Origin: a virus
Virus record (IMG/VR): IMGVR_UViG_3300042691_026070
Span: 1-43,733 of that record
Length of the DNA stretch: 43,733 bases
Strand: one strand, 5' to 3'
The notes below the pieces were generated by a model. It saw nothing but the letters and a program-made list of their open reading frames with translations. It was not told the origin of the DNA and searched no databases. Positions 4,945 through 35,137 of this stretch are shown here, piece by piece (position 1 is the stretch's first letter; every line of letters starts with the position of its first letter). The position numbers and the translations under genes are program-made.

Positions 4945-5763
4945 TCACTGTGCCGTGCGGCGGCGCCGCGCCGGCTGGTTCGGGTCCGGGGCCTCGGTGC
5001 GGGCGGGCGTGGCCGGCGCCTGCACCACAGGCGGCTGCTCGCCGTTGAGCTTGGCCAGCCACACCGACAGGTTCGGGGCCTCCACCGCGTCCAGGCCGGG
5101 CAGCCCCTTCGTCAGCAGGGTCGGCGGCCCCTGCAGCAGCACGCGGTGCTGCACCGACACCGTGCCATCGTCGGCCTTCACGCGGTCGCGGTACACGTAC
5201 CCGACGAGCGAGAAGTAGCCCGCGATCTCGTTAGGCAGCTTCTTCCCGTCGAAAGCGGGCTGCGTGAACCGCTGCCCGGTGCCCTCGTCGTTGTCGCTGG
5301 CCGCCAGCGCGATGCAGACCACGTGGAACGGGAGGTCGCGCACCGTGCGCACCAGCTTGCGCATCCGGTCGGTGAGCGTGCCCCAGTCCTGCAGGCTGAA
5401 CGCCTCGCCGCCCGGCTGCCCCTTGCGGCTGGCGATGATCTCGTCCCGCAGCATCCGCTGCAGCTCGGTCAGGCTGTCCAGCACGATGGTCTGGCACCCG
5501 GTTTCCTTGGCCAGCGAGCCGTCCAGCGCGGCCTTGAAGAACGCGCGGACGGTGTCCATGTCGCTCGCCTGCACCACCACGGCGTCCGGGTTCGCCGCCT
5601 TGATGGTCGGCAGGCCGTTGGCCTCGGTGAGCAGGTAGCACGGGCGCGGCGCAGTGCTGGCTGCGTGCGTCTTGCCTGCGCCGCTGTCGCCGTACAGCAG
5701 CGCCTTCACCTTGACTTCCTGGGCGGCCATCTCACCCACACGGGACCAGTTCAGAACGGACAT
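4945..5763 (-). CDS. RecA-like recombination ATPase, Sak4/AAA_24 type
   Basis: 272 residues, start ATG 5761-5763 with AGGAGG upstream; the frame is open much further, but that part is a shadow of the nuclease gene. Walker A GDSGAGKT is at 25-32 and Walker B TIVLDS at 92-97. The protein is a minimal RecA core (KVKALLYGDSG, TIVLDSLTELQ, DLPFHVVCIA) of the single-strand annealing type known in phages, with a disordered Pro/Arg-rich tail of about 35 residues. It overlaps the upstream nuclease gene by 13 bases and precedes the SSB gene. Together these three form a phage recombination module. Confidence 0.85.
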   Translation of the reverse strand: MSVLNWSRVGEMAAQEVKVKALLYGDSGAGKTHAASTAPRPCYLLTEANGLPTIKAANPDAVVVQASDMDTVRAFFKAALDGSLAKETGCQTIVLDSLTELQRMLRDEIIASRKGQPGGEAFSLQDWGTLTDRMRKLVRTVRDLPFHVVCIALAASDNDEGTGQRFTQPAFDGKKLPNEIAGYFSLVGYVYRDRVKADDGTVSVQHRVLLQGPPTLLTKGLPGLDAVEAPNLSVWLAKLNGEQPPVVQAPATPARTEAPDPNQPARRRRTAQ

Positions 5764-7175
5764 TCCACACCTCCTGCCGCCTCTTTTGCGGCCTGCACGT
5801 TGATCTGCTTCACGGTGTCCGACGTGAGCCAGCGCACGGGCGCCCGCTGGTCGAACACCGCCCGCCCCTCGGGGCTGTCCTGCTGGCAGATGCCGGTGAA
5901 CGGGCAGCTGCCGCCCGGCTGCCGGCACAGCGGCACGCGCGGCCACTGCGCCGCCACCGCCTCGTCGTCGGCCACCGTGCCGCCGGCACCCGTGGCGGTG
6001 CCCACCGCCGACCGCCGCCAGCCCGACAGCCGCACCGCCTCGGCGTACAGCTCCACCTCGTAGCGGCGCAGCTGCTCGGGCAGGTAGCGACCGAACTCGC
6101 GGTGATACAGGCTGCCGTCCACGCTCTCGCGCAGGTGCTGCAGCAGCTCCCGCAGCGCCTGCAGCTCGTCCGGCTTGTAGCGGGCCGCGTCCTCGGTTGC
6201 GAGCACCGCATCCATCACCCAGCTGGGCACCCGCTGGCGCTTGTCGGTGCTCAGCTTGCCGCTGGCCAGCCGCTTCGGGTCGCGCTGGTGCCCGCTGCTG
6301 GCCACGTCCCACACGTAGCCCTCCACCTGCCGACCATCGCCCCAGCGACCCGTGCCCGTGAGATACCACAGGGCGCGCAGGTAGCCGGGCAGCTGGGTGT
6401 CCAGGCCCAGGTTCTCGCCATAGGTGGCCGGGCTGGCGCTGGTCTTGGTCTCCCACAGCCACAGGTTCCCGCTGCGGCGGTTCGCCACCACCGCGTCCAG
6501 CTGCGCCAGCTGGAACCACGGCAGCACCACCTCCTGCACCTGCCCCGCCGCGTCGCCAGCGCCGGCCAGCCGCCAGCCCTCTGCCGTCTGCACCACGGGC
6601 ACCCGGCTGCGGTACGGCTCGCCCGTGCGCGGGCTGGTGATCGGTGCCGCCACAGGCAGCTCGGTCGCCAGCACCTGCCAGTCGTCGCGCAGGCCCTGCC
6701 CGTACACGTGCAGCCAGCCCTGCACCGCCCGGCGCAGGCGGTCCACCTCGCCCTCCACGCCGCCCTCGTCGGGGTCGTACACCTCGGGCGTGGCCCGCAG
6801 CTGCTGTGCCACGTACTCCACCGCGCCCAGCCCCGTGCCGCCGCACAGCGGGCACGCGCTGTCGGCGCCGCCGCAGTGCAGGCAGCGGTCCAGCCCCTCC
6901 ACGGGGTACAGCTCCCCGTCGTGGTGCTGGTGCCAGCCCAGCACGCGCTCCATCACAGCGTGGTACGCGCTTCCGAACCGCATCGCCCCGCTGGCCTCGC
7001 CACGCAGGCCGGTGCCGTACTCGTACCACCACCGACGCGGGCACCACGCAGCCCGGCGCTCGGAGTTCGTCAGGACCATCGCCCCAGGCGGCAGGCCCAC
7101 CACACCGCTCTCGTACCTGGGCGCAAGCGTTGCCGCCGCCCGGAACCGCTGTCTCTGTCTGCTGACACGCTGCAT
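5751..7175 (-). CDS. Cas4/RecB-like PD-(D/E)XK nuclease with iron-sulfur cysteines
   Basis: 474 residues from ATG 7173-7175, which has AGGAGG seven bases upstream; an in-frame GTG at 7229 is a weaker alternative. The nuclease core has RFGSAYH (His72), QLDAVV (Asp227) and LWETKTS (Glu242, Lys244). A cysteine at 45 and a C-terminal cluster C417, C424, C430 (CRQPGGSCPFTGIC) match the [4Fe-4S] arrangement of Cas4 and AddB nucleases. Between them is an insertion with a DnaJ-like zinc knuckle, CLHCGG ... CPLCGGTG (98-114). It probably resects DNA ends for the downstream Sak4-like ATPase and SSB. First gene of the replication/recombination operon. Confidence 0.82.
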   Translation of the reverse strand: MQRVSRQRQRFRAAATLAPRYESGVVGLPPGAMVLTNSERRAAWCPRRWWYEYGTGLRGEASGAMRFGSAYHAVMERVLGWHQHHDGELYPVEGLDRCLHCGGADSACPLCGGTGLGAVEYVAQQLRATPEVYDPDEGGVEGEVDRLRRAVQGWLHVYGQGLRDDWQVLATELPVAAPITSPRTGEPYRSRVPVVQTAEGWRLAGAGDAAGQVQEVVLPWFQLAQLDAVVANRRSGNLWLWETKTSASPATYGENLGLDTQLPGYLRALWYLTGTGRWGDGRQVEGYVWDVASSGHQRDPKRLASGKLSTDKRQRVPSWVMDAVLATEDAARYKPDELQALRELLQHLRESVDGSLYHREFGRYLPEQLRRYEVELYAEAVRLSGWRRSAVGTATGAGGTVADDEAVAAQWPRVPLCRQPGGSCPFTGICQQDSPEGRAVFDQRAPVRWLTSDTVKQINVQAAKEAAGGVECPF

Positions 7176-7995: not shown

Positions 7996-8022
7996 CAGTA
8001 ACCGCTCGCCGGTTAGCGGCAA
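7996..8022 (-). promoter_or_regulatory. P4, promoter of the recurrent phage family
   Basis: Minus strand: A-tract GAAAAAGTCC upstream, -35 TTGCCG (8017-8022), -10 TTACTG (7996-8001), with GGTCAGCAG at the predicted start (7981-7987). Spacer is 15 bases (16 if TACTGT is used). The TAACCG-to-TTAC distance of 8 bases is conserved. The leader hairpin GGGCGCAGCGCCC is at 7965-7977. Confidence 0.65.
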
Positions 8023-11720: not shown

Positions 11721-11749
11721 GTGTAACACCCTGCCGGTTACAGGCGCAA
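11721..11749 (-). promoter_or_regulatory. P5, promoter of the recurrent phage family
   Basis: Minus strand: -35 TTGCGC (11744-11749), 17-base spacer with TAACCG, -10 TTACAC (11721-11726) in a near-palindrome, TGTCAGCAG at 11706-11714. The A-tract TAGAAAAATG (11763-11772) includes the stop codon of the RecU-like gene. Short leader without hairpin, as at P1 and P7. Confidence 0.7.
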
Positions 11750-11769: not shown

Positions 11770-12315
11770 CTACGGGTGCGGGGAAAGGCGCGGCAGGTGC
11801 CCGTCCACGGGGCAGAACTGCACGCCCAGCTGGTGCAGCTGCGGGAAGCTGACGCTGGCGCTGCCCCGTGGCAGGTCGCGGCCAGTCTCTGCGGCCTCGT
11901 GCCATCGCTCCCACACCGGGCGCAGCCGCTGCCACGGCAGCACCCACTGCGTGCTGCTGGGCTGGTGGCGCAGCAGCACCACGCCCAGCCCGCCCTGCGC
12001 CTCCCACGCGGTCAGGCGGCGCGCCTGATGCGGGTGCAGCTTGGCCAGCTGCCAGCGGTCGGCCACGCAGTCTTTCGCCTCGGCGGCCACCGCAAGGCCA
12101 GCCGCCAGCAGGACGTAGTCGGGCGGCCCTTCGGTGGCGTACACGGCCACGAACTGCCCACCCGACAGCGAGCGCAGGATGCGCATCGGCGGCGGTGTAC
12201 GCAGCACCACCGCCTGCCCACGCGCCTCATACCGCGCGTGCCACAGCTCCAGCAGCTGCTCCCAGCCGCGCCCTCGGTTCGCGTGGCTGGTGCTGGTGCT
12301 GGTGCCGCGCGTCAC
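11770..12315 (-). CDS. RecU-like Holliday junction resolvase
   Basis: 181 residues from GTG 12313-12315, which overlaps the stop of the HTH gene as GTGA. Conserved RecU features are visible: NRGRGWEQLLE near the start, LRTPPP, the catalytic PPDYV (D66), AAEAKDC (E79, K81), and LHPHQARRL (93-101), where RecU has a conserved HQ. RecU-type enzymes cut four-way junctions before packaging or during recombination. Length is close to the usual 170-200 residues. The stop codon TAG is embedded in the A-tract of promoter P5. Third gene of the P6 operon. Confidence 0.8.
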   Translation of the reverse strand: MTRGTSTSTSHANRGRGWEQLLELWHARYEARGQAVVLRTPPPMRILRSLSGGQFVAVYATEGPPDYVLLAAGLAVAAEAKDCVADRWQLAKLHPHQARRLTAWEAQGGLGVVLLRHQPSSTQWVLPWQRLRPVWERWHEAAETGRDLPRGSASVSFPQLHQLGVQFCPVDGHLPRLSPHP

Positions 12316-12629
12316 GCTGTGCGCTGGCGGCGCAGCTGGCCCAGGTACACGCCATCGGGGCGGATCACCAGCTGCTTCCGGCACAGGTGGCACAGCAGCA
12401 GCAGCGCCGACCAGGGCGGGACACGGCCATCCGTGCCGGTTTTCCACTGGCTGAACAGCTGCGGGCGCACGCCCAGCAGCGCGGCCAGATCCTTCGATCT
12501 CGTGCCAGGGTTGCGCTGGTGCCACTCGGCAGCCAGATCGGCGAAAGCCTGCACCAGCGGCAGCGTGCCGCCGCCCTGCAGCTCGCGCAGCAGCTGCACG
12601 TCCGGGTTCTGCTCGTGCTCGTCGTTCAT
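12312..12629 (-). CDS. Cro/CI-type helix-turn-helix protein, likely regulator
   Basis: 105 residues, ATG 12627-12629, overlapping the sigma-like gene stop as ATGA and preceded by GGAGG. After an acidic start, the centre reads SKDLAALLGVRPQLFSQWKTG (about 45-65), a clear XRE/Cro-type helix-turn-helix. A second helix pair with CHLC follows and the C-terminus is basic. It may repress or tune the phage promoters, several of which carry a palindrome over the -10. It is sandwiched between the sigma-like and RecU-like genes, so it would be made together with them. Confidence 0.7.
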   Translation of the reverse strand: MNDEHEQNPDVQLLRELQGGGTLPLVQAFADLAAEWHQRNPGTRSKDLAALLGVRPQLFSQWKTGTDGRVPPWSALLLLCHLCRKQLVIRPDGVYLGQLRRQRTA

Positions 12630-13099
12630 GCTGCACCCTCCAGGCGCGCGCGCAGGCGCGCCACACGGCGACGGGCGCTGAACGGCGCGCACCCGCACGC
12701 CGCGCCCAGGTCCTCACCCGTCAGTCCATCGGCGGCGGCCAGCGCCGCCTGCCACTCGTCCGGGCGCGCCAGCCGGCGGGCCTGTGCCGCCAGCACCCAC
12801 GCCTCAGCTGTCGGCGCGGCGACCGGGTGGGCGGCGTCCTCCAGCTCGTCCTCCTGCAGCCGCCGACGGCGCTGGTCCAGCATGGCGCTACGCACCGCGC
12901 GCGCCTGCCACCAGACCCAGGTGGACGGCTTGGCCACCGCGCCGTCGTACACGCGCCACCGCTCCACCAGCCGCACCAGCAGTGCGCTGTGCAGGTCGTC
13001 GGCGTCCAGGCCAGTGCCGCTCGACACGCGCCACGCGGCGCACCGCACCACCTGCGCGTGCTGCAGGACCCATCCCCAGGCTTCGCTATGCTCGCTCAT
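12626..13099 (-). CDS. RNA polymerase sigma-factor-like protein
   Basis: 157 residues, ATG 13097-13099 behind AAGGAGG. Residues of about 20-80 match sigma-70 region 2: DADDLHSALLVRLVERW (acidic core-binding helix), YDGAVAKPSTWVWWQARAVR with the aromatic melting segment, then LDQRRRR. An acidic linker (about 82-95) leads to region 4-like helices with LTGEDLGAACGCAPFSARRR (126-145) as the -35-reading helix-turn-helix. Size is typical of compact ECF-type sigma factors. It is the first gene of the P6 operon, and P6 belongs to the promoter family it might recognise. Some phage terminase small subunits also carry helix-turn-helix domains, but region 2 argues for sigma. Confidence 0.65.
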   Translation of the reverse strand: MSEHSEAWGWVLQHAQVVRCAAWRVSSGTGLDADDLHSALLVRLVERWRVYDGAVAKPSTWVWWQARAVRSAMLDQRRRRLQEDELEDAAHPVAAPTAEAWVLAAQARRLARPDEWQAALAAADGLTGEDLGAACGCAPFSARRRVARLRARLEGAA

Positions 13100-13137
13100 C
13101 TGTCCTCCTTGCGGCTGTGCCGCTGCTGACTGTTACC

Positions 13138-13165
13138 GTGTAACCGCCCGGCGGGTAGCGCGCAA
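13138..13165 (-). promoter_or_regulatory. P6, family promoter of the sigma-like operon
   Basis: Minus strand: -35 TTGCGC (13160-13165), 16-base spacer with TACCCG in place of TAACCG, -10 TTACAC (13138-13143), AGTCAGCAG at the predicted start (13122-13130). The stop codon of the RmlC-like gene is one base from the -35, so the usual A-tract is absent. Leader hairpin GCGGCACAGCCGC (13111-13123) and AAGGAGG. Confidence 0.65.
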
Positions 13166-13166
13166 G

Positions 13167-13799
13167 CTACCCGTCACGGCTGCGGCGCCATTCGTAGCCC
13201 TTGCCCACCGCAGGCCCTGCGTGCGCGTCGCGCCGCCACTCGTCGGTGCCGTCGTACTCGTGCGACACGGCGTTCAGCACGTGCGCCTCGCCGTAGCCGG
13301 GCAGCGCCATCCACCCGTGCGCCCAGCCGGGCGGCACCACCACCTGCGCGGGGTTCCGCTCCGGGTGCAGCACCACCTCGTGCACGGGCGGCAGGGCGTA
13401 GCCCAGCCGGGTGGCTCGGTCGTGTGCGCGCAAGTCGTACAGGGCCAGCAGCACGGCGCCGCGCAGCACCGTGAAGCGGTCGGACTGCTGCGCGTGCAGG
13501 TGCCAGCCCTTGACCACGCCCTCGGCGGTGGTGCTGGCGTAGACCTGCGCCACCTCGCCACGGCGCGGCAGCTGCACCTCGCCGGGCAGGCGCTCGCGGT
13601 GCCAGCTGACGCGGTGCAGCTCCACCAGGGCGCCGCGCGCGTCCACGTGCCAGCGCAGCGGGCGCACCTCGACCGGATGGGCGTGCCACGGCTCCGTGCC
13701 GCCCAGCGTGCGCACCACGGGCAGCGGGTGCTGCTGCGGGCTGGTGGCCCAGCGGGTGTAACCCTGCGCCTCGTAGATGGTTGCGATGTCGTCGTTCAT
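13167..13799 (-). CDS. RmlC-like cupin: dTDP-4-keto-6-deoxyhexose 3,5-epimerase family
   Basis: 210 residues, ATG 13797-13799 with AGGAGG upstream, overlapping the previous gene as ATGA. After about 40 extra residues, the RmlC pattern appears: PLRWHVDARGALVELHR (48-63), WHLHAQQSDRF (99-109, the family His...Q), VLRGAVLLALYDLR, and VVVPPGWAHGWMAL (153-166). RmlC converts dTDP-4-keto-6-deoxyglucose toward dTDP-L-rhamnose, the step before RmlD. An RmlD-like gene lies 4.5 kb upstream in the same orientation. Substrate is inferred; related cupins act on other dTDP-ketosugars. Confidence 0.75.
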   Translation of the reverse strand: MNDDIATIYEAQGYTRWATSPQQHPLPVVRTLGGTEPWHAHPVEVRPLRWHVDARGALVELHRVSWHRERLPGEVQLPRRGEVAQVYASTTAEGVVKGWHLHAQQSDRFTVLRGAVLLALYDLRAHDRATRLGYALPPVHEVVLHPERNPAQVVVPPGWAHGWMALPGYGEAHVLNAVSHEYDGTDEWRRDAHAGPAVGKGYEWRRSRDG

Positions 13800-14215
13800 G
13801 GCCTGTCCTCCTGTCGAATGCGTGGCAAAAGCTCGATGCTGGGCGCGTAGCCGTACAGGCGCGTCCACAGGTCGCGCAGCGTGCCGTACACTGCGCCGCT
13901 GGCCTGCCCGGCGCGCTGCTCCAGCACGTGCCACAGGGCGGCGTCCACCGCGCCCTGCGCTGCGTAGCGTGCGAACAGCTCGCGCAGGCGCGGGTCCAGC
14001 GCAGCCCAGCGGGTGCCCCACAGCAGCAGGCGCTGCTGCTGCTCTGCGGTCAGCCCGTCGTGGCCCGCCAGGGACAGCCGGGCGGCCTCCACCAGCGCGC
14101 CCGCAGGCGGCCACCAGCCTGCCAGGGCCTGCAGGCGGGCACAGGCGGCCAGCACCTGCGCCGTGGCCGCCACAGGGTGCTGCGGCACCGGGCCGCCAGG
14201 GCTACGGGATCGCAC
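13796..14215 (-). CDS. Unknown helical protein between VWA and RmlC-like genes
   Basis: About 139 residues from GTG 14213-14215, overlapping the VWA gene end by 14 bases; a later GTG is also possible since no clear ribosome site decides the start. The protein is helical with many Leu, Trp and Arg (LLLWGTRWAALDPRLRELFA). Its stop overlaps the next start by ATGA. No family recognised. Coupling to the VWA gene on one side and the epimerase on the other suggests expression from P7 as a three-gene unit. Confidence 0.6.
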   Translation of the reverse strand: MRSRSPGGPVPQHPVAATAQVLAACARLQALAGWWPPAGALVEAARLSLAGHDGLTAEQQQRLLLWGTRWAALDPRLRELFARYAAQGAVDAALWHVLEQRAGQASGAVYGTLRDLWTRLYGYAPSIELLPRIRQEDRP

Positions 14216-15674
14216 CGGCCACCACCTGCCCGTCGTTGCGTGCCGCTGCGGTGTCGAGGTCCACCGTGTGGTCGGCCAGCTGCGTCACAGCGTGGCCCAG
14301 GCTGCCGCCGCCCACCGTGAGCGCGAACACCCGCAGGCCGTCCGCCTTGGCGGCGTGCAGGCGGTCCATCACCGCCACGGGCGCGTCGGCGTGGCCGTCG
14401 GTGACCAGCACGAGGTCGGCGCGCTCACGGGTCACGCCGTCCTCCAGCTCCAGGGCGGCCAGCAGCGGCGGCGCGAACTGCGTGCCGCCGGACGGCGTGC
14501 TGCTGGCCACGTGCAGGGCCACGTCGGCGCAGCCGCCCATCGCCACCGCCTGCGCGACGTTGTGCACGTCGTGCCGCCACGCGGTGCCCTGCGCGTCCAG
14601 CCGCACCACGTAGCGCACCGCGCCGTTGAACCCGATCACCGTGCAGGCGCGACGCTCGCGGGCGGCGGTGCCCAGGCAGGCCAGCGCCACCGCAGCGGCC
14701 CACAGGCTGCGCTCACCCTCCATGCTGCCGCTCTCGTCCAGCAGCACCACCACGGGGCCGCGCCCCTTCGGCACCTGCCCGACCACGTGGTACTGCTGCA
14801 GGCGGCGGTCGGCCAGCTTGGCCAGCTGCACGCGGCGCAGGCGCGGGTGGCGCAGCAGGCCCAGCTCGGTGGGCAGCGCGCGGGGCAGGTCGCCGCCGAT
14901 GGTGGTGCCGACCAGCGTGTCCGCGCCCAGCTCGTCGCGCACCTTGCGCCCGTCGCTGGCGAGGCGGCGCAGGCGGCCCGCCAGCTTCATCACCCGGCGC
15001 AGGCGGTCGTCGCTGCTAACGCGCTCGGCCAGCGCCATGCGCGCGGTGCCGTCCTGCTGGTGCTGCGCGGGCGTGCCGCCCAGGCCCGGCGCCAACCCTT
15101 CCATGCCGTCCGCCGCTTCGGCGGCAGCCTGCGCTGCGTCGCCGCAGGCGCCCCGCAGCGCGCGGCGCAGGGCGCCGTCAGCGTCGGCAGCCGGGCCGCG
15201 CTGGGCGCGCCCCTGGGCGGCCTGCTGCGCCTGCTGGCGCTCCTGCTCGGCCACCTGCGGCAGCGCGCCCGCCACACCGCGCACCAGCCGGGCGGTGGCC
15301 AGCGCAGCGAGGTCCGGGTCGCCCGCCACCTGCGCCTGCAGCTGCGCGTACTCGGGCAGCTGCTGCAGCTGCGCGTGCACGCGCGCCACCAGCTCGGTGT
15401 CCGGCGCGGGCTTGTCCAGCACAGCGGCGTCGCTGGCGTCGTAGAGGCCGGCGAACACCTCGCGGGCGGTGGCGGTGGCCAGCGTGTCCAGGCGGCGCGC
15501 CTCAACGGCGTCGGCGGACTTGGCGTGCGCGCGGTACGCGCTGCTCAGGGCGTTCCGGGCGCTGCGCAGCGTGTCGCTGCTGCCCTCGCGGGTGGTGTAG
15601 AGATAGTCGGCCCAGCGGGACACGGCGCGGGTGGCGTCGGTGTGGCGGGCGGTGGTGTAAGCGGCTGCGGTCAT
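14202..15674 (-). CDS. VWA-domain protein, CobT/CoxE/ViaA type
   Basis: 490 residues, ATG 15672-15674 behind GGAGG. The N-terminal ~300 residues are helical and charged, with a Gln/Ala-rich stretch (about 140-190). The C-terminal von Willebrand A domain starts at VVVLLDESGSM with an intact metal site (D313, S315, S317), T398 in SGGTQF and D426 in LVLVTDGHAD. Such proteins pair with MoxR-type AAA+ ATPases as substrate adaptors for metal insertion or remodelling. The MoxR gene is immediately upstream, which makes a partnership very likely. Own family promoter (P7). Confidence 0.85.
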   Translation of the reverse strand: MTAAAYTTARHTDATRAVSRWADYLYTTREGSSDTLRSARNALSSAYRAHAKSADAVEARRLDTLATATAREVFAGLYDASDAAVLDKPAPDTELVARVHAQLQQLPEYAQLQAQVAGDPDLAALATARLVRGVAGALPQVAEQERQQAQQAAQGRAQRGPAADADGALRRALRGACGDAAQAAAEAADGMEGLAPGLGGTPAQHQQDGTARMALAERVSSDDRLRRVMKLAGRLRRLASDGRKVRDELGADTLVGTTIGGDLPRALPTELGLLRHPRLRRVQLAKLADRRLQQYHVVGQVPKGRGPVVVLLDESGSMEGERSLWAAAVALACLGTAARERRACTVIGFNGAVRYVVRLDAQGTAWRHDVHNVAQAVAMGGCADVALHVASSTPSGGTQFAPPLLAALELEDGVTRERADLVLVTDGHADAPVAVMDRLHAAKADGLRVFALTVGGGSLGHAVTQLADHTVDLDTAAARNDGQVVAGAIP

Positions 15675-15698
15675 GGTGTCCTCCTGCTGACGGTTAGT

Positions 15699-15727
15699 GT
15701 GTAACACCTGCGCGGTTAGGGGCGCAA
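15699..15727 (-). promoter_or_regulatory. P7, family promoter of the VWA gene
   Basis: Minus strand: -35 TTGCGC (15722-15727), 17-base spacer with TAACCG, -10 TTACAC (15699-15704), CGTCAGCAG at 15684-15691. The usual A-tract is replaced by the T-run of the MoxR terminator. Confidence 0.7.
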
Positions 15728-15738
15728 GGTGCGCACGC

Positions 15739-15774
15739 AAAAAAAGGACACGCCCGCTGCGACGAGCGGGCGTG
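15739..15774 (-). terminator. Rho-independent terminator of the MoxR gene
   Basis: Perfect 10-base stem AGCGGGCGTG / CACGCCCGCT (15749-15774) with a 6-base loop, followed on the minus strand by TCC and seven T residues (15739-15745). It ends 11 bases before the -35 of P7, so terminator and promoter are fused. Confidence 0.85.
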
Positions 15775-15799
15775 CTGCGCCTGCAGGCGCTGCTGCGCG

Positions 15800-16936
15800 C
15801 TACCCTGCCAGCCCGCTGCCCAGCCCGCTGGCGGCCATGAAGCGCCGCGCCAGCCCCTTGCGCAGCTCTGCCACCTGGGCGTGGCAGGCGGCCACGTCCA
15901 CGTCGGCCAGCCCCAGGCCCACCAGCTCGGCCTCCACCGCCTTGATGCGCTGCAGGGCGCGCGCGCCGTCGGCGCCCACGTCCTTCACGGCGTCGTAGAC
16001 CTCGCGGGCGCTGTCGGCCAGCTTCGTGGCGGCGGCCAGCTTCGGGGCGGCGACGGCCAGCACGGTGGCCAGCACTGCCGGGCGCTGGTCGTGGCGGTGC
16101 CACACGCTGTCGGCCAGCACCAGCAGGTCGCGCGCGGTGGCGGTGGTGCGCCCGTCCAGCGCGGCGCTGGCCTGCAGCAGCCGCACCATCCCGCGCAGGC
16201 GGCGGTCGCTGACGGTGATGCCGTTGTCGGCGGCCAGCTTGTCGGCCACGTCGCACAGCAGCTCCAGCACGTCCTGCGGCACCACCACGTCGCGCACCGC
16301 CTGCTGCAGCACCTGCACCGCGTCGGGCGCCAGCTTGGCCGTCACCACCTGCGCGGGGTCGGCGGCGGTGAGCAGGGCCAGCCGGCCAGCGCGGGTCGGC
16401 ACGTACTGCGTCCAATAGCGCAGCGTGAAGCGGTCGTAGAGCGCCTCCAGGCTGGCGTCCTCGGGGTACTCGTTGCTCGCACCCACGCACAGCTCCAGCG
16501 GCAGCTGCAGGCGAGCGGTGCCGTTGTCGAACTGGCGCTCGTTGAGCACCGTGAGCAGGCTGTTCAGGATGGCGCTGTTTGCCTTGAACACCTCGTCGCA
16601 GAACGCCACCGTGGCGGTCGGCAGGTAGCCCTGCACGGCGCGCTCGTACCGGCCCGCGTCCAGCGCGGCGAGGTCGTAGGGGCCGAACAGCTCCTCGGGC
16701 GCGGTGAAGGCGGTCAGCAGTCGCTGGAAGTAGTCGCCGCCCAGGGCGCTGGCGAACACCTGGGTCACCAGCGACTTGGCGGTGCCGGGAGGCCCCAGCA
16801 GCAGAACGTGCGTGCGGGCCAGCAGCGCGAGCAGCAGCCCGTCAATCTCGGCGTCGCGGGCGACGAAAGCGCCCTTCATCTGGCTGCGGAGGGTAGCGAG
16901 CTGCGTGCGGGCGGTGTCGATGGTGGTGGTGGTCAT
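15800..16936 (-). CDS. MoxR-family AAA+ ATPase
   Basis: 378 residues, ATG 16934-16936 behind CAGGAGCAAGG. AAA+ motifs: Walker A GPPGTAKS (48-55), the MoxR-typical AFTAPEELFGPYD (76-88), Walker B ATVAFCDEVFKAN (108-120), sensor 1 GASNE (152-156), arginine-finger region LYDRF (166-170), then the lid. MoxR ATPases work with VWA proteins as chaperones or metal-chelatase motors; CobS-like versions are known in phages. Flanked by the VWA gene and a 360-aa unknown gene, each with its own P-family promoter. Ends in a strong terminator. Confidence 0.88.
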   Translation of the reverse strand: MTTTTIDTARTQLATLRSQMKGAFVARDAEIDGLLLALLARTHVLLLGPPGTAKSLVTQVFASALGGDYFQRLLTAFTAPEELFGPYDLAALDAGRYERAVQGYLPTATVAFCDEVFKANSAILNSLLTVLNERQFDNGTARLQLPLELCVGASNEYPEDASLEALYDRFTLRYWTQYVPTRAGRLALLTAADPAQVVTAKLAPDAVQVLQQAVRDVVVPQDVLELLCDVADKLAADNGITVSDRRLRGMVRLLQASAALDGRTTATARDLLVLADSVWHRHDQRPAVLATVLAVAAPKLAAATKLADSAREVYDAVKDVGADGARALQRIKAVEAELVGLGLADVDVAACHAQVAELRKGLARRFMAASGLGSGLAG

Positions 16937-16989
16937 GGCCTTGCTCCTGCGGTGGTGGTGGTGGGCGCTGCGCCCTGCTGACAACGCTA

Positions 16990-17018
16990 CGCTAACCGGG
17001 CAGCGGTTAGGGGCGCAA
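16990..17018 (-). promoter_or_regulatory. P8, family promoter of the MoxR gene
   Basis: Minus strand: -35 TTGCGC (17013-17018), 17-base spacer with TAACCG, -10 TTAGCG (16990-16995; TAGCGT with 18), TTGTCAGCAG at the predicted start (16975-16984). Leader hairpin GGGCGCAGCGCCC (16963-16975) is shared with P4. Confidence 0.7.
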
Positions 17019-17043
17019 GGTGTGCGCCAGCAGAAAGGCAAAG

Positions 17044-17084
17044 AAAAACGCAAGCGGCGCACCGGGTGATGCCCGATGCGCCGC
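17044..17084 (-). terminator. Rho-independent terminator of the 360-aa gene
   Basis: Arms GCGGCGCA / TGCGCCGC with an inner CGGG/CCCG pairing (17054-17084), followed on the minus strand by TTGCGTTTTTCTTT. Lies just before P8. Confidence 0.75.
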
Positions 17085-17105
17085 GCTGGTGCGGGTTCCC
17101 GGCGG

Positions 17106-18188
17106 TTAGGCGGCCTGCGCCTCCATCGCGCTGGCCAGCGCCTCCACCAGCGCCTCGCGGTCGGTGGGCTGCTCGCCGCTGCCCAGGGCGTCCCACAGCG
17201 TGCCCAGCTGCGTGGCGCTCATGGCGCGCAGGGCGGCGCGGCGCGCCTGCTGCGGGCTGGCGGCGGGCGCGGCGGGCTGGTCGGCCTTGCGCGCAGCACC
17301 GCGCGCGTCGGCCTCGGCGTCCTTGTCCGCGATGATGTCCTCGGCCAGCGCGCGCATCTCAGCCACGTCCGCCTCGATGTCCTCCACCGCCACCTGCAGG
17401 GCCTCGCGGTACAGCGCGGCGCGCTGGGCGATGCTGGCGAACCGGGCCAGCACGTGCTCCTGCGTGTCGCTGCGCACGCGCTTGGCCATGTCGCGCCAGC
17501 CCTCGATCTGCGCCTGCAGCTCCTGCAGGTCGTTGCGCAGCTCGGTGCGGCTCGCCTCGGCCAGCGGCGCCTCCCAGCCCTGCGCCGGCTGCACCTGCGC
17601 CACGTGCACGCGGAAGGTGTCCAGGCCCGCCAGCGCGCGCTGGGCGTCCTGCACCGGGCCGCAGGTGACGTGCGGCACCACGTGCATCCCGCGCCGCAGG
17701 GTGAAGCTGCGGGCGCGCTCCAGCGCCGGCACCACCAGCAGGTCGCGCACCGCGTTGCCGTCGAGGTACGTGGCCAGCTCGCCCGCGTTGGCGCGCAGCG
17801 TGGCGGCCTCGTGCGTCAGCCCCGTGGTGTGCCACGCGCGGGCCACCTTGTCCCACACCAGCTCGTCGGTGGGCAGCTTGGCCACGCGCTCGCGGGCCTG
17901 CTGGGTCAGCGTCAGCAGGTTGACGACGATGAAGCTGTCGTCCTCGTGCGCGATGGCGGCCTCCATCGTCACGCGCTTGCCCTGGTGCACGCGGAACTCG
18001 CGCACCGCCTGCCGCACCGCGTCGGTGGCGTCGATGTCCTTGACGGTGTCCGGGTCGCCGCCGCTGGCGGCCACGCGGGCGCGCAGGTCGGCGGGCGTGA
18101 TGGCGGTGCCGCTGAACTCCCACCACACCAGGGAGGCAAGGCCGGCGGTGACGTTGTCGAGGCGGTCGGTGGTCTGAACGAGGGTCAT
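17106..18188 (-). CDS. Unknown 360-aa protein, probable third member of the MoxR/VWA cassette
   Basis: 360 residues, ATG 18186-18188 with AAGGAGAGACACC upstream. The N-terminal half is mixed alpha/beta (SLVWWEFSGTAITPADLRAR, later AVREFRVHQGKRVTMEAA). Residues of about 190-310 are a long helical coiled-coil region (RNDLQELQAQIEGWRDMAKR). The C-terminal ~35 residues form a small helical domain (MSATQLGTLWDALGSGEQP) after an Ala/Pro linker. No enzyme motif and no family assigned with confidence. Contiguity with MoxR and VWA genes, a matching promoter and its own terminator suggest a partner or target of the ATPase. Confidence 0.7.
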   Translation of the reverse strand: MTLVQTTDRLDNVTAGLASLVWWEFSGTAITPADLRARVAASGGDPDTVKDIDATDAVRQAVREFRVHQGKRVTMEAAIAHEDDSFIVVNLLTLTQQARERVAKLPTDELVWDKVARAWHTTGLTHEAATLRANAGELATYLDGNAVRDLLVVPALERARSFTLRRGMHVVPHVTCGPVQDAQRALAGLDTFRVHVAQVQPAQGWEAPLAEASRTELRNDLQELQAQIEGWRDMAKRVRSDTQEHVLARFASIAQRAALYREALQVAVEDIEADVAEMRALAEDIIADKDAEADARGAARKADQPAAPAASPQQARRAALRAMSATQLGTLWDALGSGEQPTDREALVEALASAMEAQAA

Positions 18189-18242
18189 GGTGTCTCTCCT
18201 TGCGGTTACTGCTGACAGCGGTGCACCGGCACCGTGCCAACG

Positions 18243-18271
18243 GTATAACCGCGTCGCCGTTAGGCGCGCAA
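18243..18271 (-). promoter_or_regulatory. P9, family promoter of the 360-aa gene
   Basis: Minus strand: -35 TTGCGC (18266-18271), 17-base spacer with TAACGG, -10 TTATAC (18243-18248), the best consensus -10 of the set, in the palindrome CGGTTATACCG. Here TGTCAGCAG (18209-18217) is 19 rather than 6 bases downstream of the -10, the one exception in the family. Confidence 0.65.
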
Positions 18272-18290
18272 GCGAGACAGCCAGAAAAAG

Positions 18291-18998
18291 TTAGACACGC
18301 CGCCAGCTGGTGTCGCGTGGCTGCACTGGAAGGCCCTTTGACACTGCATCCTGCGATGATGCGATCACGCGCTGCAGCGCCGGGTGGGCAGGGTAGCGGG
18401 CGGCCAGCAGCTGCGCGGGCGTGACGGCACACGGGCCGCCCAGCTCCACCAGCCGCTCCAGCTGGTGCGCGGGGTAGCCCGCCCAGGTGCCCAGCAGCGG
18501 CACCAGCTCGTCCAGCCAGCAGCGGTGAGCCACGCTGTAGCCGTTGACCCACTGCCAGCCTGCCGCCTGCTCGGGCGTGGTGAACGCCACGCGCGCCACG
18601 TAGCCGCCAGCCAGCAGCACCAGCTGCTCGGCCACGAGCTTGGCGGCAGCGTACACGCCCGCGCCGTCCTGCCGCAGCACTGCGTGCACGTAGTCGGTGC
18701 TCACGTACAGCAGCGGCACGCGCACGGAGGCGGCGGCGTCGATGGCGTACTGCGTGGACAGCACCGTGTCCCGCACGCAGCTGCCGGGCTGGCGCTGTGC
18801 GCCGGGCACGTCGGTCCACGCGGCCAGGGCCAGCACCCGGTCGGGTGCCGCAGCCTGCACGGCTGCCTGCACGGCGCCACGGCAGGACCAGTCCAGCTCG
18901 GCGCGCGGCGGCGCCAGCACCTCGTGGCCACGGTCGCGCAGCCAGGGCACCAGCTCGCGCCCCAGGCGCCCGCCACCGCCGCTGACCAGCACCCTCAC
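18291..18998 (-). CDS. RmlD-like dTDP-4-dehydrorhamnose reductase
   Basis: 235 residues from GTG 18996-18998, overlapping the previous stop as GTGA with AAGGA upstream. A Rossmann start VRVLVSGGGGRLGREL carries the NAD(P)-binding glycines. LALAAWTDVPGAQ (56-68), YVSTDYVHAV (98-107) and the catalytic pair Tyr116/Lys120 in VYAAAKLVAE are in the places expected for RmlD short-chain reductases. It is about 50 residues shorter than usual, mainly at the C-terminus. It would finish dTDP-L-rhamnose (or a relative) after the RmlC-like enzyme. Odd position: it directly follows the lysis genes. Confidence 0.78.
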   Translation of the reverse strand: MRVLVSGGGGRLGRELVPWLRDRGHEVLAPPRAELDWSCRGAVQAAVQAAAPDRVLALAAWTDVPGAQRQPGSCVRDTVLSTQYAIDAAASVRVPLLYVSTDYVHAVLRQDGAGVYAAAKLVAEQLVLLAGGYVARVAFTTPEQAAGWQWVNGYSVAHRCWLDELVPLLGTWAGYPAHQLERLVELGGPCAVTPAQLLAARYPAHPALQRVIASSQDAVSKGLPVQPRDTSWRRV

Positions 18999-19396
18999 GG
19001 TACGTCCTTGCACGCGCCCTGCAGCGCCTGCAGCATCAGCGCCTCCACGGCGCGGCATTCGGGCCGGTTCGCGGTGCTCTGGCCGAACTGCAGGCAGGTG
19101 GCCCAGGCGCACTCGGGGCTGCGCGGGTTGCCGCCCGCATCGCGCCGGCACTGCACGGGCACCTGCGCCAGCTCGCTGCGCAGCTCGGCGTCCAGCACCA
19201 CGGGGCGCCCGGCTGCCTCCACGATCTGCACCTGCCCCGCCTGTAGCGCGGCCAGGGTGCGGCCTTGCTCGGCCAGCACGTCGGCCTGCGCCTCCAGCGC
19301 GGCGGCGCTGCTGTCGGGCCGCAGGCCCCAGCCCGCCCCGAACCCTGCGCCCAGCGCGGCCACCACCGCGATCGCTACCCACGTCACCGGGTCCAT
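18995..19396 (-). CDS. Putative spanin-like membrane protein (i-spanin type)
   Basis: 133 residues from ATG 19394-19396, chosen for GGGAG five bases upstream; an ATG at 19409-19411 overlapping the endolysin stop as ATGA is the alternative. One N-terminal membrane helix (VAIAVVAALGAGFGAGWGL) is followed by a helical, Gln/Glu-rich periplasm-type region (LEAQADVLAEQGRTLAALQA), then a Cys-containing tail. This layout and the location after the endolysin fit an inner-membrane spanin, but no outer-membrane partner is seen. Confidence 0.5.
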   Translation of the reverse strand: MDPVTWVAIAVVAALGAGFGAGWGLRPDSSAAALEAQADVLAEQGRTLAALQAGQVQIVEAAGRPVVLDAELRSELAQVPVQCRRDAGGNPRSPECAWATCLQFGQSTANRPECRAVEALMLQALQGACKDVP

Positions 19397-19407
19397 GCGT
19401 ACTCCCG

Positions 19408-20214
19408 TCATGCTGCCGGCAGCGCCAGCAGGCGCGGCCAGACCGTTTCATCGGCGCGCAGTGCCAGGGCCACCGCGTCGCTGTCGGACACGCCCAGCGC
19501 GCTGGCCAGCGCGAGCCTGGACCGCCCGCCCCACAGCCCGTCGATCTGCCCCAGGTCGTACCCGGCACGCACCAGCAGCGCCTGCGTCACGCTGGCCCAG
19601 CTGGTGCCCGCTCCAGCGTGACCCACCAGCAGCGCACCAGCGAACGCCGCCTGCGCGTAGCCCAGCCGTGCGAGCACGCCGTGCAGGTCGCCCCAGCAGT
19701 CGAGGTGCCACGCCTCGCTGGCGCGCTCGTCGGGCGCACGGATCACAGGCGCCCAGCCCAGCGGGCGCGCAAGCTCCCACAGCCGGTCCAGCTGCCGGTC
19801 AGCAGGCACGCCAGGGAACCGCAGCGCGCCCAGGTCAACGTCGATGGCGCGCCCAGCGTTGTGCATCGACCTGCCCGGCACCGCCACGAAAGCGGGCTTC
19901 ATGCTGGCGCTGTCGAAGCCGGGCGAACCGGGCGCAGGCTTGCCTGCAGCCACCCACCTGTCGTATCTGGCACGTGCAGCCTGCTGCGTGGCCACGTCGC
20001 GGTGCAGCTCGGTCACGCGGAAGTCGCCACCTGCAGCCAGCACCGCCTCGTGCAGCGCCAGCAGGGCGGCAGCGGTGGCTGGTGTGGCCAGCCCAGCACG
20101 CCCCAGCTGCGCGAGAGGGCGCAGGTCGGCGCGCGGGCCGCCAGTGCCGCCACGCTGGCCGTAGCTGGACAGGATCGCGGCGTCTACGCGCACGAGTGCG
20201 ACGGGTGTGGTCAC
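19408..20214 (-). CDS. Endolysin: M15-type peptidase with C-terminal peptidoglycan-binding-like domain
   Basis: 268 residues from GTG 20212-20214, which overlaps the holin stop as GTGA and follows GGAGG. The M15 (VanY / L-Ala-D-Glu endopeptidase) signature is intact: GRSMHNAGRAIDVDL supplies His118 and Asp125, and ASEAWHLD supplies Glu167 and His170. Residues of about 200-245 (VTQALLVRAGYDLGQIDGLW, then SRLALASALG) match a PG_binding_1-like repeat. It would cleave cell-wall peptides for lysis. Holin upstream and spanin-like gene downstream complete the cassette. Confidence 0.87.
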   Translation of the reverse strand: MTTPVALVRVDAAILSSYGQRGGTGGPRADLRPLAQLGRAGLATPATAAALLALHEAVLAAGGDFRVTELHRDVATQQAARARYDRWVAAGKPAPGSPGFDSASMKPAFVAVPGRSMHNAGRAIDVDLGALRFPGVPADRQLDRLWELARPLGWAPVIRAPDERASEAWHLDCWGDLHGVLARLGYAQAAFAGALLVGHAGAGTSWASVTQALLVRAGYDLGQIDGLWGGRSRLALASALGVSDSDAVALALRADETVWPRLLALPAA

Positions 20215-20648
20215 GGGGCCTCCACGGGCGGTTCGGGCGGTGGCAGCGGGGCCTGCGGCGGCGGCACCGCGCGCGTGCCAAAATAGTACGAAAACACCAT
20301 CAGGCACGTGTCTTTCACGAATGCCAGGATGCTGCTGTGGTCGGCATCGTTCAGCAGGCTGGTGTCCGGCCCCGCCACCAGCAGGTCGGCCACGAAAGCG
20401 CCCACCACCAGCGCCACCATCGTCGTCACGAACTGCGTCAGCGCGGCGTGCTCGTCGCGGCTGCGCTGGTAGATGCGCGCCACGGTCCACAGCACACCGC
20501 CGATGATGGCGATGCACAGCGTGATGGCCAGCAGCGCGCCGCCCGTGGTGTCGTAGAGGCTCGGGTAGCTGCGGGGCGCAGGCGGCACAGGCTGCAGCAC
20601 CGCCTGCTCGGGCGGGATGTCTGCCTCCATCTGCCAGCTGTCTGCCAC
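20211..20648 (-). CDS. Putative holin
   Basis: About 145 residues from GTG 20646-20648 (GAGGG upstream); ATG 20628-20630 is an alternative. Three hydrophobic segments: ALLAITLCIAIIGGVLWTV, FVTTMVALVVGAFVADLLVA and a weaker ILAFVKDTCLMVFSYYFG, with a charged loop between and a Pro-rich tail. Placement directly before the endolysin supports a holin, although the sequence is longer than many. Its stop overlaps the endolysin start. Confidence 0.65.
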   Translation of the reverse strand: MADSWQMEADIPPEQAVLQPVPPAPRSYPSLYDTTGGALLAITLCIAIIGGVLWTVARIYQRSRDEHAALTQFVTTMVALVVGAFVADLLVAGPDTSLLNDADHSSILAFVKDTCLMVFSYYFGTRAVPPPQAPLPPPEPPVEAP

Positions 20649-20655
20649 GTTGCCC

Positions 20656-20874
20656 TCACGCGCCCCGCTGTACCACGCGCACCGCCCACGTGCTGTGCGC
20701 GGGCGCAGGTGCAGGTGCAGGCGGCGCAGCGCCGGCAGGTGCTGCACGTGGCGCAGGCGCGGCGCCCACCGCCGGGGCAGGCACCGGGGCGGTCTGCAGC
20801 TCTTCGCGGGCGGCGCGCACGTCCTCGCGCGCGGTCAGAACCAGGGCCAGCAGCTGCTCGCGGGCGGACATCAT
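20656..20874 (-). CDS. Small Ala/Pro-rich protein, unknown
   Basis: 72 residues, ATG 20872-20874 overlapping the previous stop as ATGA. An N-terminal helix (REQLLALVLTAREDVRAARE) is followed by an Ala/Pro low-complexity stretch (about 29-60) and a short basic end. No family recognised. Lies inside the lysis region. Confidence 0.5.
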   Translation of the reverse strand: MMSAREQLLALVLTAREDVRAAREELQTAPVPAPAVGAAPAPRAAPAGAAPPAPAPAPAHSTWAVRVVQRGA

Positions 20875-21173
20875 GGCAGGCGCTCCAGCGTTGTGTGCAT
20901 CTGCTGCAGGGACTGGTCCACGCTGACGAGGCGCTGGTCGATCCTTGCCAGCAGCTGCCCGTCGGCGCGCTGGTGCTGCTCCAGCTGGGCCACGCGCGAC
21001 ACCAGCTGTGCACCCTCGGTGCGGTCGCTCACCGTTTTCAGCTCGTCCATCCGGCGGTGCAGCGCGGCGATATGCTCGCGGGTCCTGTCGCTGGCGCGCA
21101 CCCACACGCGCTCCAGCGTGACCAGGGCGGACAGGGCAAGGCCCGCCCAGCCCACCGCCTCGTCCGCCGTCAC
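20871..21173 (-). CDS. Small membrane-anchored coiled-coil protein, XhlA-like in layout
   Basis: 100 residues from GTG 21171-21173, overlapping the previous stop as GTGA. One N-terminal hydrophobic helix (VGWAGLALSALVTLERVWV), then a heptad-rich coiled coil (LVSRVAQLEQHQRADGQLLA, DQRLVSVDQSLQQM). Similar layouts occur in holin-associated proteins such as XhlA, but there the membrane helix is usually C-terminal, so the relation is only suggestive. Confidence 0.5.
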   Translation of the reverse strand: MTADEAVGWAGLALSALVTLERVWVRASDRTREHIAALHRRMDELKTVSDRTEGAQLVSRVAQLEQHQRADGQLLARIDQRLVSVDQSLQQMHTTLERLP

Positions 21174-35115: not shown

Positions 35116-35131
35116 GCTCCGCTCCTGCCGC

Positions 35132-35137
35132 ATCGTA
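35132..35137 (-). promoter_or_regulatory. Candidate late -10 element before the tape measure gene
   Basis: Minus strand GCGATACGATGCG: TACGAT fits TAnnnT, 17 bases upstream of the tape measure ATG. One of four GYGATACnnTG elements in front of late genes. No shared -35. With so short a leader, RNA from here would be close to leaderless, which lowers confidence. Confidence 0.3.

What the first reader, a model, noticed from the sequence alone, without database searches (positions are those of the whole stretch)
14202..18271. Three-gene MoxR / VWA / unknown cassette, each gene with its own matching promoter
A 360-aa coiled-coil protein, a MoxR ATPase and a VWA protein with an intact metal site are contiguous. 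All three have P-family promoters, and the first two end in real terminators. MoxR-VWA pairs are known chaperone or metal-chelatase machines, but a phage version with a third dedicated partner and separate promoters is unusual. It is flanked by RmlC- and RmlD-like genes. It may be an undescribed phage remodelling, anti-defence or takeover system.
Basis: partly seen in the sequence, partly recalled or inferred. Interest (0 to 1): 0.72.

Follow-up and report, generated by a model that had tools for sequence, protein, structure and literature searches.

The report
Three-gene AAA+ machine of mobile DNA
Three neighbouring phage genes (a MoxR-type motor, its VWA partner and an unstudied DUF6744 protein) form a conserved set that recurs on viruses, plasmids and integrated elements, in part beside DNA recombination genes, and probably encode an undescribed motor complex that works on the element's own DNA replication or repair.

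Summary
The window is a tailed-phage contig with VWA (14202-15674), MoxR (15800-16936) and a 360-aa protein (17106-18188) contiguous on the minus strand. Each gene has its own matching promoter-like site; the first two end in hairpin terminators. The same operator dyad occurs at six other sites, so it is not private to the trio.

The 360-aa protein is a divergent DUF6744 (PF20529) relative. DUF6744/MoxR/VWA recurs as a module: 63 of the best 80 IMG/VR MoxR loci carry all three (58 within 6 kb), as do six of six annotated plasmid loci opened and, starting from DUF6744, 24 of 32 fetched bacterial regions.

In a quarter to a third of trio loci an exonuclease follows VWA, usually with a Sak4- or Rad52-type annealase; none of 54 DUF6744-free chromosomal MoxR-VWA loci shows this.

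I read it as a MoxR-vWA ternary AAA+ remodelling machine with DUF6744 as third subunit, serving replication or recombination of mobile DNA. The module is well supported; the DNA role is inferred from neighbours, and anti-defence is not excluded. MoxR-vWA ternary systems are a known kind; this third subunit and setting are undescribed in the papers searched.

The parts
17106..18188 (-). 360-aa protein, divergent DUF6744 relative: N-terminal alpha/beta domain (about residues 14-200), three-helix coiled coil (206-303), C-terminal three-helix SAP-like tail (312-359)
   Evidence: Pfam PF20529 E 6e-4 alone (below cut-off); profile-profile prob 97.3, E 2.7e-11 over 275 columns; AlphaFold2 pLDDT 93.6
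15800..16936 (-). MoxR AAA+ ATPase, 378 aa, RavA-like core, shorter than RavA
   Evidence: Pfam bpMoxR E 2e-59; family profile matches RavA chains E 2e-87; Walker A/B intact
14202..15674 (-). VWA protein, 490 aa, C-terminal VWA domain with intact MIDAS
   Evidence: Pfam VWA_2 E 9e-6; invariant S315, T398, D420 and nearly invariant D313 across 12 aligned sequences
18243..18271 (-). promoter-like site of the DUF6744 gene (TTGCGC-N17-TTATAC with TAAC-N9-GTTA dyad)
   Evidence: dyad 9 observed in the window, 0 in 100 shuffles
16990..17018 (-). promoter-like site of moxR (TTGCGC-N17-TTAGCG with dyad)
15699..15727 (-). promoter-like site of the VWA gene (TTGCGC-N17-TTACAC with dyad)
17054..17084 (-). 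terminator after the DUF6744 gene
15748..15775 (-). terminator after moxR
5751..7175 (-). PD-(D/E)XK exonuclease of the phrog_1218 family, the family that follows VWA in part of the relatives (here 7 kb downstream); associated, not a core part
11770..12210 (-). Holliday-junction-resolvase-like gene, nearby non-structural gene; associated only
   Evidence: PHROG phrog_843 E 3e-13

Best explanation
The trio encodes a three-subunit AAA+ remodelling machine carried by mobile DNA. Shown: the three genes form a conserved, co-inherited module; MoxR has an intact ATPase core of the RavA type; VWA has an intact metal-dependent peptide-binding site; DUF6744 is the recurring third family; and in part of the loci the module sits directly before an exonuclease-annealase pair. 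Inferred: MoxR forms a hexameric motor, VWA is its adaptor, and DUF6744 is the dedicated client or targeting subunit, which in this phage lineage carries an extra SAP-like tail that could touch nucleic acid. Using ATP, the machine would load, mature or dismantle nucleoprotein complexes during recombination-dependent replication or repair of the element's DNA.
For: Forward test: of the 80 best IMG/VR MoxR loci, 63 carry all three genes, 58 of them within 6 kb and 62 of 63 on one strand. Reverse test from PF20529: 24 of 32 fetched bacterial regions have both partners. Six of six annotated plasmid loci that I opened and Moorella phage MTATph1 carry the trio. DUF6744 distances follow MoxR (r 0.79) and VWA (r 0.83) about as closely as MoxR follows VWA (0.84); 0 of 2000 permutations each, 61 loci.

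DNA link: same-strand exonuclease within 3 kb after VWA in 16 of 61 viral trio loci, Sak4-like annealase in 11 of 61; exonuclease in 4 and Rad52-type annealase in 6 of 13 chromosomal trio loci; each in 8 of 24 reverse-test loci (two of these are the same contigs as L154 and L171 of the chromosomal set); 0 of 54 DUF6744-free chromosomal MoxR-VWA loci (families named). Two different annealase families hold the same place. In the window no dyad lies between 18.3 and 41.1 kb, where the structural genes are.
Against: All functional evidence is neighbourhood. The exonuclease-annealase pair is present in a minority of trio loci, and 2 of 18 viral loci counted as DUF6744-free also have it (one of them, L065, proved to have a cut DUF6744 at the contig edge). 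The neighbour profiles were built from trio loci, so they may miss other exonucleases in the controls, and recombination genes are common in phages. In a sample of 143 neighbour ORFs from 29 viral trio loci only 2 matched PDDEXK_1 and 2 AAA_24, no more than amidase, DNA ligase or DnaB. Of the 29 fetched reverse-test regions longer than 4.1 kb, five have DUF6744 without the partners (L229, L230, L233, L234, L254). On divergent pairs only the distance correlations fall to 0.42-0.62. The N-terminal domain of DUF6744 has no clear structural relative. No physical interaction was tested.
Confidence: 0.45

Rival explanations
1. Anti-defence or host-takeover machine: the AAA+ complex dismantles a host complex that attacks incoming DNA (for example a RecBCD/AddAB-type nuclease or a restriction complex). 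Its place in recombination operons would resemble lambda gam or P22 abc.
For: Found on phages, plasmids and probably integrated elements, which share the need to survive host nucleases. Anti-nuclease genes sit in recombination operons of known phages (recalled, no call). DUF6744 varies strongly between distant loci (mean column identity 22% over 45 sequences), which would also fit a factor that meets different hosts.
Against: No direct evidence. PADLOC gave nothing for the window trio; of five homologues only two MoxR proteins gave weak hits, at the P-loop (that library lists defence, not anti-defence). No anti-defence library was searched.
Confidence: 0.22
2. Virion-assembly chaperone, as for Acidianus two-tailed virus p618/p892: the MoxR-VWA pair folds or extends tail proteins.
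For: The only viral MoxR-VWA pair for which I saw biochemistry has this proposed role (PMC4124505, passages); a similar role was proposed for group 2.2 jumbo phages (PMC7824862, passages).
Against: The trio is on plasmids and on Myxococcota regions with ParB, RadC and, in part, conjugation genes. In the window its promoter motif is not seen in the structural block.
Confidence: 0.12
3. Cobaltochelatase-like (CobS/CobT) auxiliary enzyme that boosts host cobalamin synthesis, as proposed for viral cobST.
For: Viral AAA+/VWA pairs are reported as widely encoded cobST (PMC8651126, passages).
Against: The MoxR profile matches RavA; no CobS or CobT Pfam model appears for the window proteins at E up to 0.1. 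HVTV-1's annotated AAA protein does not match the trio's MoxR profile.
Confidence: 0.04
4. A conflict (defence) system carried as cargo by mobile elements, like the VMAP, iSTAND, FtsH and beta-propeller MoxR-vWA systems.
For: Same two core parts plus a third subunit (PMC7159879, section 22 and passages).
Against: No effector domain found in the three window proteins; no PADLOC match for the window trio.
Confidence: 0.1

Closest known systems
RavA-ViaA (E. coli)
   Same: MoxR core of the RavA type (profile E 2e-87 over positions 11-333); a separate VWA protein (ViaA's layout is recalled)
   Different: MoxR here is 378 aa against about 500 for the RavA chains; a third DUF6744 gene is added; set on mobile DNA, in part with recombination genes
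MoxR-vWA-centric ternary systems (VMAP, iSTAND, FtsH, beta-propeller; PMC7159879)
   Same: MoxR plus vWA plus a third conserved protein; Walker A of the form GXXXTAKS as often in the FtsH and beta-propeller types (section 22)
   Different: Third protein matches DUF6744 and no model of those systems; no beta-propeller, peptidase or effector domain found in the window proteins
Acidianus two-tailed virus p618/p892
   Same: Virus-borne MoxR ATPase with a VWA partner that stimulates it (PMC4124505, passages)
   Different: Virion component in an archaeal virus; 28% identity over about half of MoxR; I did not search those genomes for DUF6744
Bacillus phage 0305phi8-36 orf66/orf63 and cyanophage CL131 MoxR-VWA pairs
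   Same: Phage MoxR-VWA pairs (PMC2147016, passages). The CL131 pair lies next to dnaN
   Different: No PF20529 match in the whole CL131 record, where an LPD29 protein stands before MoxR. The contig of 0305phi8-36 length, L091, shows none within the 19 kb held

Membership tests
DUF6744 (PF20529) | profile match over the curated cut-off | tested here: not met
   19.3 bits against 27 for the window protein; 16.9-24.2 bits for four close relatives. So it is a relative of the family, not a member by Pfam's rule
DUF6744 (PF20529) | homology along the length to accepted members | tested here: met
   hhalign of the window clade (5 sequences) against seven annotated or over-cut-off DUF6744 proteins: prob 97.3, E 2.7e-11, 275 columns
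MoxR AAA+ ATPases, RavA type | AAA+ core with Walker A, Walker B and lid | tested here: met
RavA-ViaA system | RavA insert (LARA) domain | tested here: inconclusive
   The family profile aligns to RavA only up to chain residue about 337, and the window protein is 378 aa against about 500; no structure of it was predicted
vWA co-chaperones | MIDAS residues DxSxS, T, D | tested here: met
MoxR-vWA-beta-propeller ternary system | beta-propeller fused to vWA and in the third component | tested here: not met
   No propeller family in any of the three proteins at E up to 0.1; the model of the third protein is alpha/beta plus coiled coil
VMAP, iSTAND and FtsH ternary systems | VMAP, inactive STAND or FtsH third component | tested here: inconclusive
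   The third protein's only Pfam match at E up to 0.1 is DUF6744; I did not check which VMAP or iSTAND models Pfam holds, nor compare with those proteins directly
Cobaltochelatase CobS-CobT | CobS and CobT families with CobN partner | tested here: not met
   No CobS or CobT model at E up to 0.1 (that Pfam holds such models is recalled); CobN was not sought
Acidianus-type tail chaperone | virion component acting on tail proteins | not testable with these tools
   Needs particle proteomics

The most novel reading that the evidence does not exclude
DUF6744-MoxR-VWA is a fifth class of MoxR-vWA ternary machine, spread across phages, plasmids and integrated elements of several phyla, and the first one dedicated to DNA: it acts on exonuclease-annealase complexes of recombination-dependent replication, either as their loader or recycling motor, or to strip host recombination nucleases from the element's DNA.
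Probability: 0.4. Interest if true: 0.78.

Novelty: new variant of a known kind. Interest (0 to 1): 0.6.

Why it matters
MoxR-VWA pairs turn up again and again in phage genomes and are set aside as 'chaperones' or 'cobST'. Here one group proves to be a three-part set that many unrelated mobile elements carry, with a third subunit of unknown function and telling genetic company. That makes the role of a class of viral AAA+ proteins testable, and suggests an ATP-driven remodelling step in mobile-element recombination that is not described in the papers searched here.

Tried and rejected
Promoter motif private to the trio: rejected; six of nine dyad sites lie elsewhere.

A dedicated fourth partner: not found. 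Among 143 neighbour ORFs of 29 viral trio loci 76 Pfam families matched; the table of the 25 commonest shows none in more than two ORFs.

Known defence system: no PADLOC match for the window proteins; the only hits, on two homologous MoxR proteins, were weak and at the P-loop (IetA E 5e-4, MkoA 0.005, mad8 3e-4).

Known fold for DUF6744: no PDB match at E up to 0.001 for the whole model or for the N-terminal domain predicted alone. VIA-align rows to CorA, ribosome recycling factor and BAG domains cover chiefly the helical bundle (Z up to 11, in the range the tool calls common for bundles). For the N-terminal domain the best rows are Z 5.9 or less (EF-G, RnlA, AMPK), which I treat as unresolved. 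The SAP-like reading of the tail rests on one row (4qoz_B, Z 6.4, rmsd 2.0, 49 residues), on a recalled location of the SAP domain in that chain, and on a tail that most aligned DUF6744 proteins lack. Sequence search of the DUF6744 profile against PDB chains gave nothing better than E 0.06.

DUF6744 relatives in annotated phages by sequence: none from the window protein; only Moorella phage MTATph1 itself from its own protein.

LPD29 as the usual substitute for DUF6744: not seen; in the loci held at that point the CL131 protein matched only itself and Geobacillus virus E3.

Rfam: no match in the window. tRNA: none. Host of the window phage: not determined.
Full report
WHAT IS THERE. The window is a 43.7-kb virus record of about 73% GC. 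Of 40 ORFs that pass a codon-bias filter 36 are on the minus strand, with a tape-measure protein at 30196-35133 and primase/helicase, exonuclease and helicase genes in the first 9 kb. The finding's three genes lie in transcription order DUF-like (17106-18188), MoxR (15800-16936), VWA (14202-15674). Intergenic gaps are 169 and 125 nt; VWA overlaps the next ORF by 14 nt. Flanking RmlD- and RmlC-like genes are confirmed. They recur in close relatives (RmlD in L005, L006, L007 and L008; RmlC in L005 and L006), so they look like lineage neighbours; the trio's wider relatives were not checked for them.

REGULATION. Each trio gene has a promoter-like site TTGCGC-N17-TTA with a TAAC-N9-GTTA dyad spanning the spacer. 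The dyad occurs nine times in the window and in none of 100 dinucleotide shuffles. A plain sigma-70 consensus scan of 12000-21000 found no promoter, so the evidence is recurrence, not the textbook consensus. The other six dyads start at 224, 800, 1124, 7999, 11724 and 41150. Those at 11724, 1124, 800 and 224 have the full layout on the minus strand; the one at 41150 has it on the plus strand, against the direction of the genes; the one at 7999 has the dyad alone, 77 nt before a gene start. None lies between 18.3 and 41.1 kb, where the structural genes are. Relatives L022, L025 and L026 keep a comparable site before each trio gene whose upstream region is held; L023, L028 and L029 show the dyad before two of the three genes; L027 has another operator with a similar TTGCGC-like element; L031 and L035 show no such site (for L023 DUF6744, L028 moxR, L029 VWA and L031 DUF6744 my automatic start choice was probably wrong, so these say nothing). 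Two terminators are supported by folding. So 'each gene with its own matching promoter' holds as a motif, but the motif is phage-wide.

THE THIRD PROTEIN. Alone it matches Pfam DUF6744 below the cut-off (E 6e-4). Profile-profile comparison of its clade with seven DUF6744 proteins gives E 2.7e-11 over 275 columns. AlphaFold2 on an alignment of 51 sequences gives pLDDT 93.6: an alpha/beta N-terminal half, a three-helix coiled coil, and a short helical tail. BFVD returns four viral proteins at E below 1e-9, one from halovirus HVTV-1. HVTV1_25, which has that entry's length, matches the family profile at E 4e-31. In HVTV-1 it lies about 15 kb from the AAA/VWA pair, and viruses of that family are reported to encode the pair as CobST (PMC8651126, passages), so HVTV-1 is not a clean example of the trio. 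No solved structure is clearly similar.

CO-OCCURRENCE, FORWARD. A MoxR profile built from six trio members was scanned against IMG/VR: 110 relatives, best 80 kept. With first profiles 63 of 80 had DUF6744 at E below 1e-3 and 79 of 80 had VWA. With the larger family profile 64 of 80 have DUF6744 (63 at E below 1e-10), 63 of 80 have all three, 58 within 6 kb; order D-M-V 44 plus one mixed-strand, M-V-D 11, M-D-V 5, D-V-M 1, V-M-D 1. Some of the 80 are near-identical contigs. The query favours trio MoxRs, so this is not a frequency among all MoxRs.

CO-OCCURRENCE, REVERSE. PF20529 over its cut-off was found in 12 of 398 genomes of the phylum of Alicyclobacillus, 3 of 396 of the phylum of an Actinomycetota MAG, and 22 of 193 of the phylum of Anaeromyxobacter. 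These calls list 44 places over the cut-off; I fetched 32 regions covering 33 of them and left out 11: three whose loci were already known to hold the trio (L102, L111, L118), seven weak or partial matches, and one full match (G875). Both partners were found in 24 of 32 regions; of the eight misses three are contigs under 4.1 kb (L225, L226, L253) and five are L229, L230 (a broken frame), L233, L234 and L254. In PLSDB, 20 plasmids hold a relative of the Moorella DUF6744; I opened seven loci, one unannotated. In the other six MoxR-like and VWA-like genes lie beside DUF6744, in the order D-M-V in Brevibacillus, Alicyclobacillus and Pseudanabaena and M-V-D in Streptomyces, Nocardia and Rubrobacter (in three of the six the VWA gene is annotated only as hypothetical, and the alignment shows the metal-site residues).

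CO-INHERITANCE. In 61 non-redundant loci pairwise distances of DUF6744 correlate with MoxR (0.79) and VWA (0.83), close to MoxR with VWA (0.84), 0 of 2000 permutations each. On divergent pairs only the values fall to 0.42, 0.58 and 0.62. Shared ancestry of the elements contributes to this.

COMPANY. Clustering of neighbours in 72 non-redundant trio loci gave an exonuclease family in 16, a helicase in 10, an AAA_24 family in 8, DNA polymerase beta clamp in 6 and Rad52-type in 5 (families). PHROGs names AAA_24 as Sak4-like annealing protein, the gene after it, weakly, as single-strand-binding protein, the next as replication initiation, and the exonuclease as phrog_1218, the family of the window's own exonuclease. 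Position control: same-strand exonuclease within 3 kb after VWA in 16 of 61 viral trio loci (some redundant), 2 of 18 viral loci then counted as DUF6744-free, 4 of 13 chromosomal trio loci, 8 of 24 reverse-test loci, 0 of 54 DUF6744-free chromosomal MoxR-VWA loci (43 of these 67 loci have 3 kb of sequence after VWA). The profiles come from trio loci, the chromosomal control is mostly housekeeping DNA and so is lenient, and the viral control is small. In a separate Pfam scan of 143 neighbour ORFs from 29 viral trio loci no family exceeded two members. In 16 Myxococcota regions a Rad52-type family occurs in 8 and the nuclease in 7, and ParB-type and RadC-type families in 7 each (four ParB and two RadC members were confirmed by Pfam); two of 82 scanned neighbours match conjugation coupling models, so some of these regions are probably integrative elements.

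WHAT IT PROBABLY IS. A MoxR-vWA ternary machine on mobile DNA with DUF6744 as third subunit. That the three work together I put at about 0.85; that the task is replication or recombination of the element at about 0.45. Plasmid and island copies argue against a virion role as the general function, though it is the role proposed for the one viral MoxR-VWA pair with biochemistry that I saw (Acidianus two-tailed virus; PMC4124505, passages). Anti-nuclease action is the strongest rival.

WHAT IS KNOWN. Phage and virus MoxR-VWA pairs are in print: Bacillus phage 0305phi8-36 (PMC2147016, passages), jumbo phages (PMC7824862, passages), haloviruses (PMC7911831, passages; PMC8651126, passages); cyanophage S-CREM1 has a MoxR (PMC9964418, passages). 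MoxR-vWA ternary conflict systems are described in PMC7159879 (section 22 and passages). No paper in the held library contains DUF6744 or PF20529. Searches joining MoxR with phage, vWA, ViaA, Rad52 or CobS terms listed none whose title or abstract start describes this triple, but several of these listings showed only the top part (15 of 56, 10 of 47, 12 of 22 and 8 of 119 papers). Most subscription papers, and bioRxiv preprints as such, are outside that library.

Noticed in passing
window 224, 800, 1124, 11724 (minus-strand layout), 41150 (plus-strand layout), 7999 (dyad alone): Six further TAAC-N9-GTTA dyads outside the trio; five share the TTGCGC promoter layout, followed by a conserved GTCAGCAG shortly after the -10. 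This looks like a phage-wide regulon, possibly run by the sigma-70-region-2-like (12626-13099) or HTH-like (12312-12629) gene. The 41150 site points against the gene direction.
   Followed up: partly
L054, L068, L071, L072, L075, L079, L087, L090, L093, L100 and other viral loci without DUF6744: Most viral MoxR-VWA loci without DUF6744 form a coherent group: a protein of about 297 aa that looks by eye like a reverse transcriptase lies after VWA in 11 loci, a protein of about 195 aa with Cys pairs lies just before MoxR in 9, and a roughly 2000-aa protein in 10 (L071 and L072 are near-identical).
   Followed up: no
L010:758-1600 (Aphanizomenon phage CL131) and L021:6992-10135 (Geobacillus virus E3): In CL131 an LPD29 protein takes the place of DUF6744 before MoxR-VWA, followed by dnaN; its relative in Geobacillus virus E3 is a 1047-aa protein without annotated MoxR or VWA in the stretch shown.
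   Followed up: partly
hits H3-H8: Records named Campylobacter phage A11a/A18a and two short Escherichia/Salmonella phage records carry a MoxR at the same identity values (43.4% or 41.9%) as two Salmonella-named records, which suggests host DNA in those deposits.
   Followed up: no
L027 upstream of DUF6744, MoxR and VWA: A relative 57-66% identical in the three proteins has a different repeated promoter motif (TTGCGC/TTGCAA followed by TGTAC) before the same three genes, as if operator and regulator had changed together.
   Followed up: no
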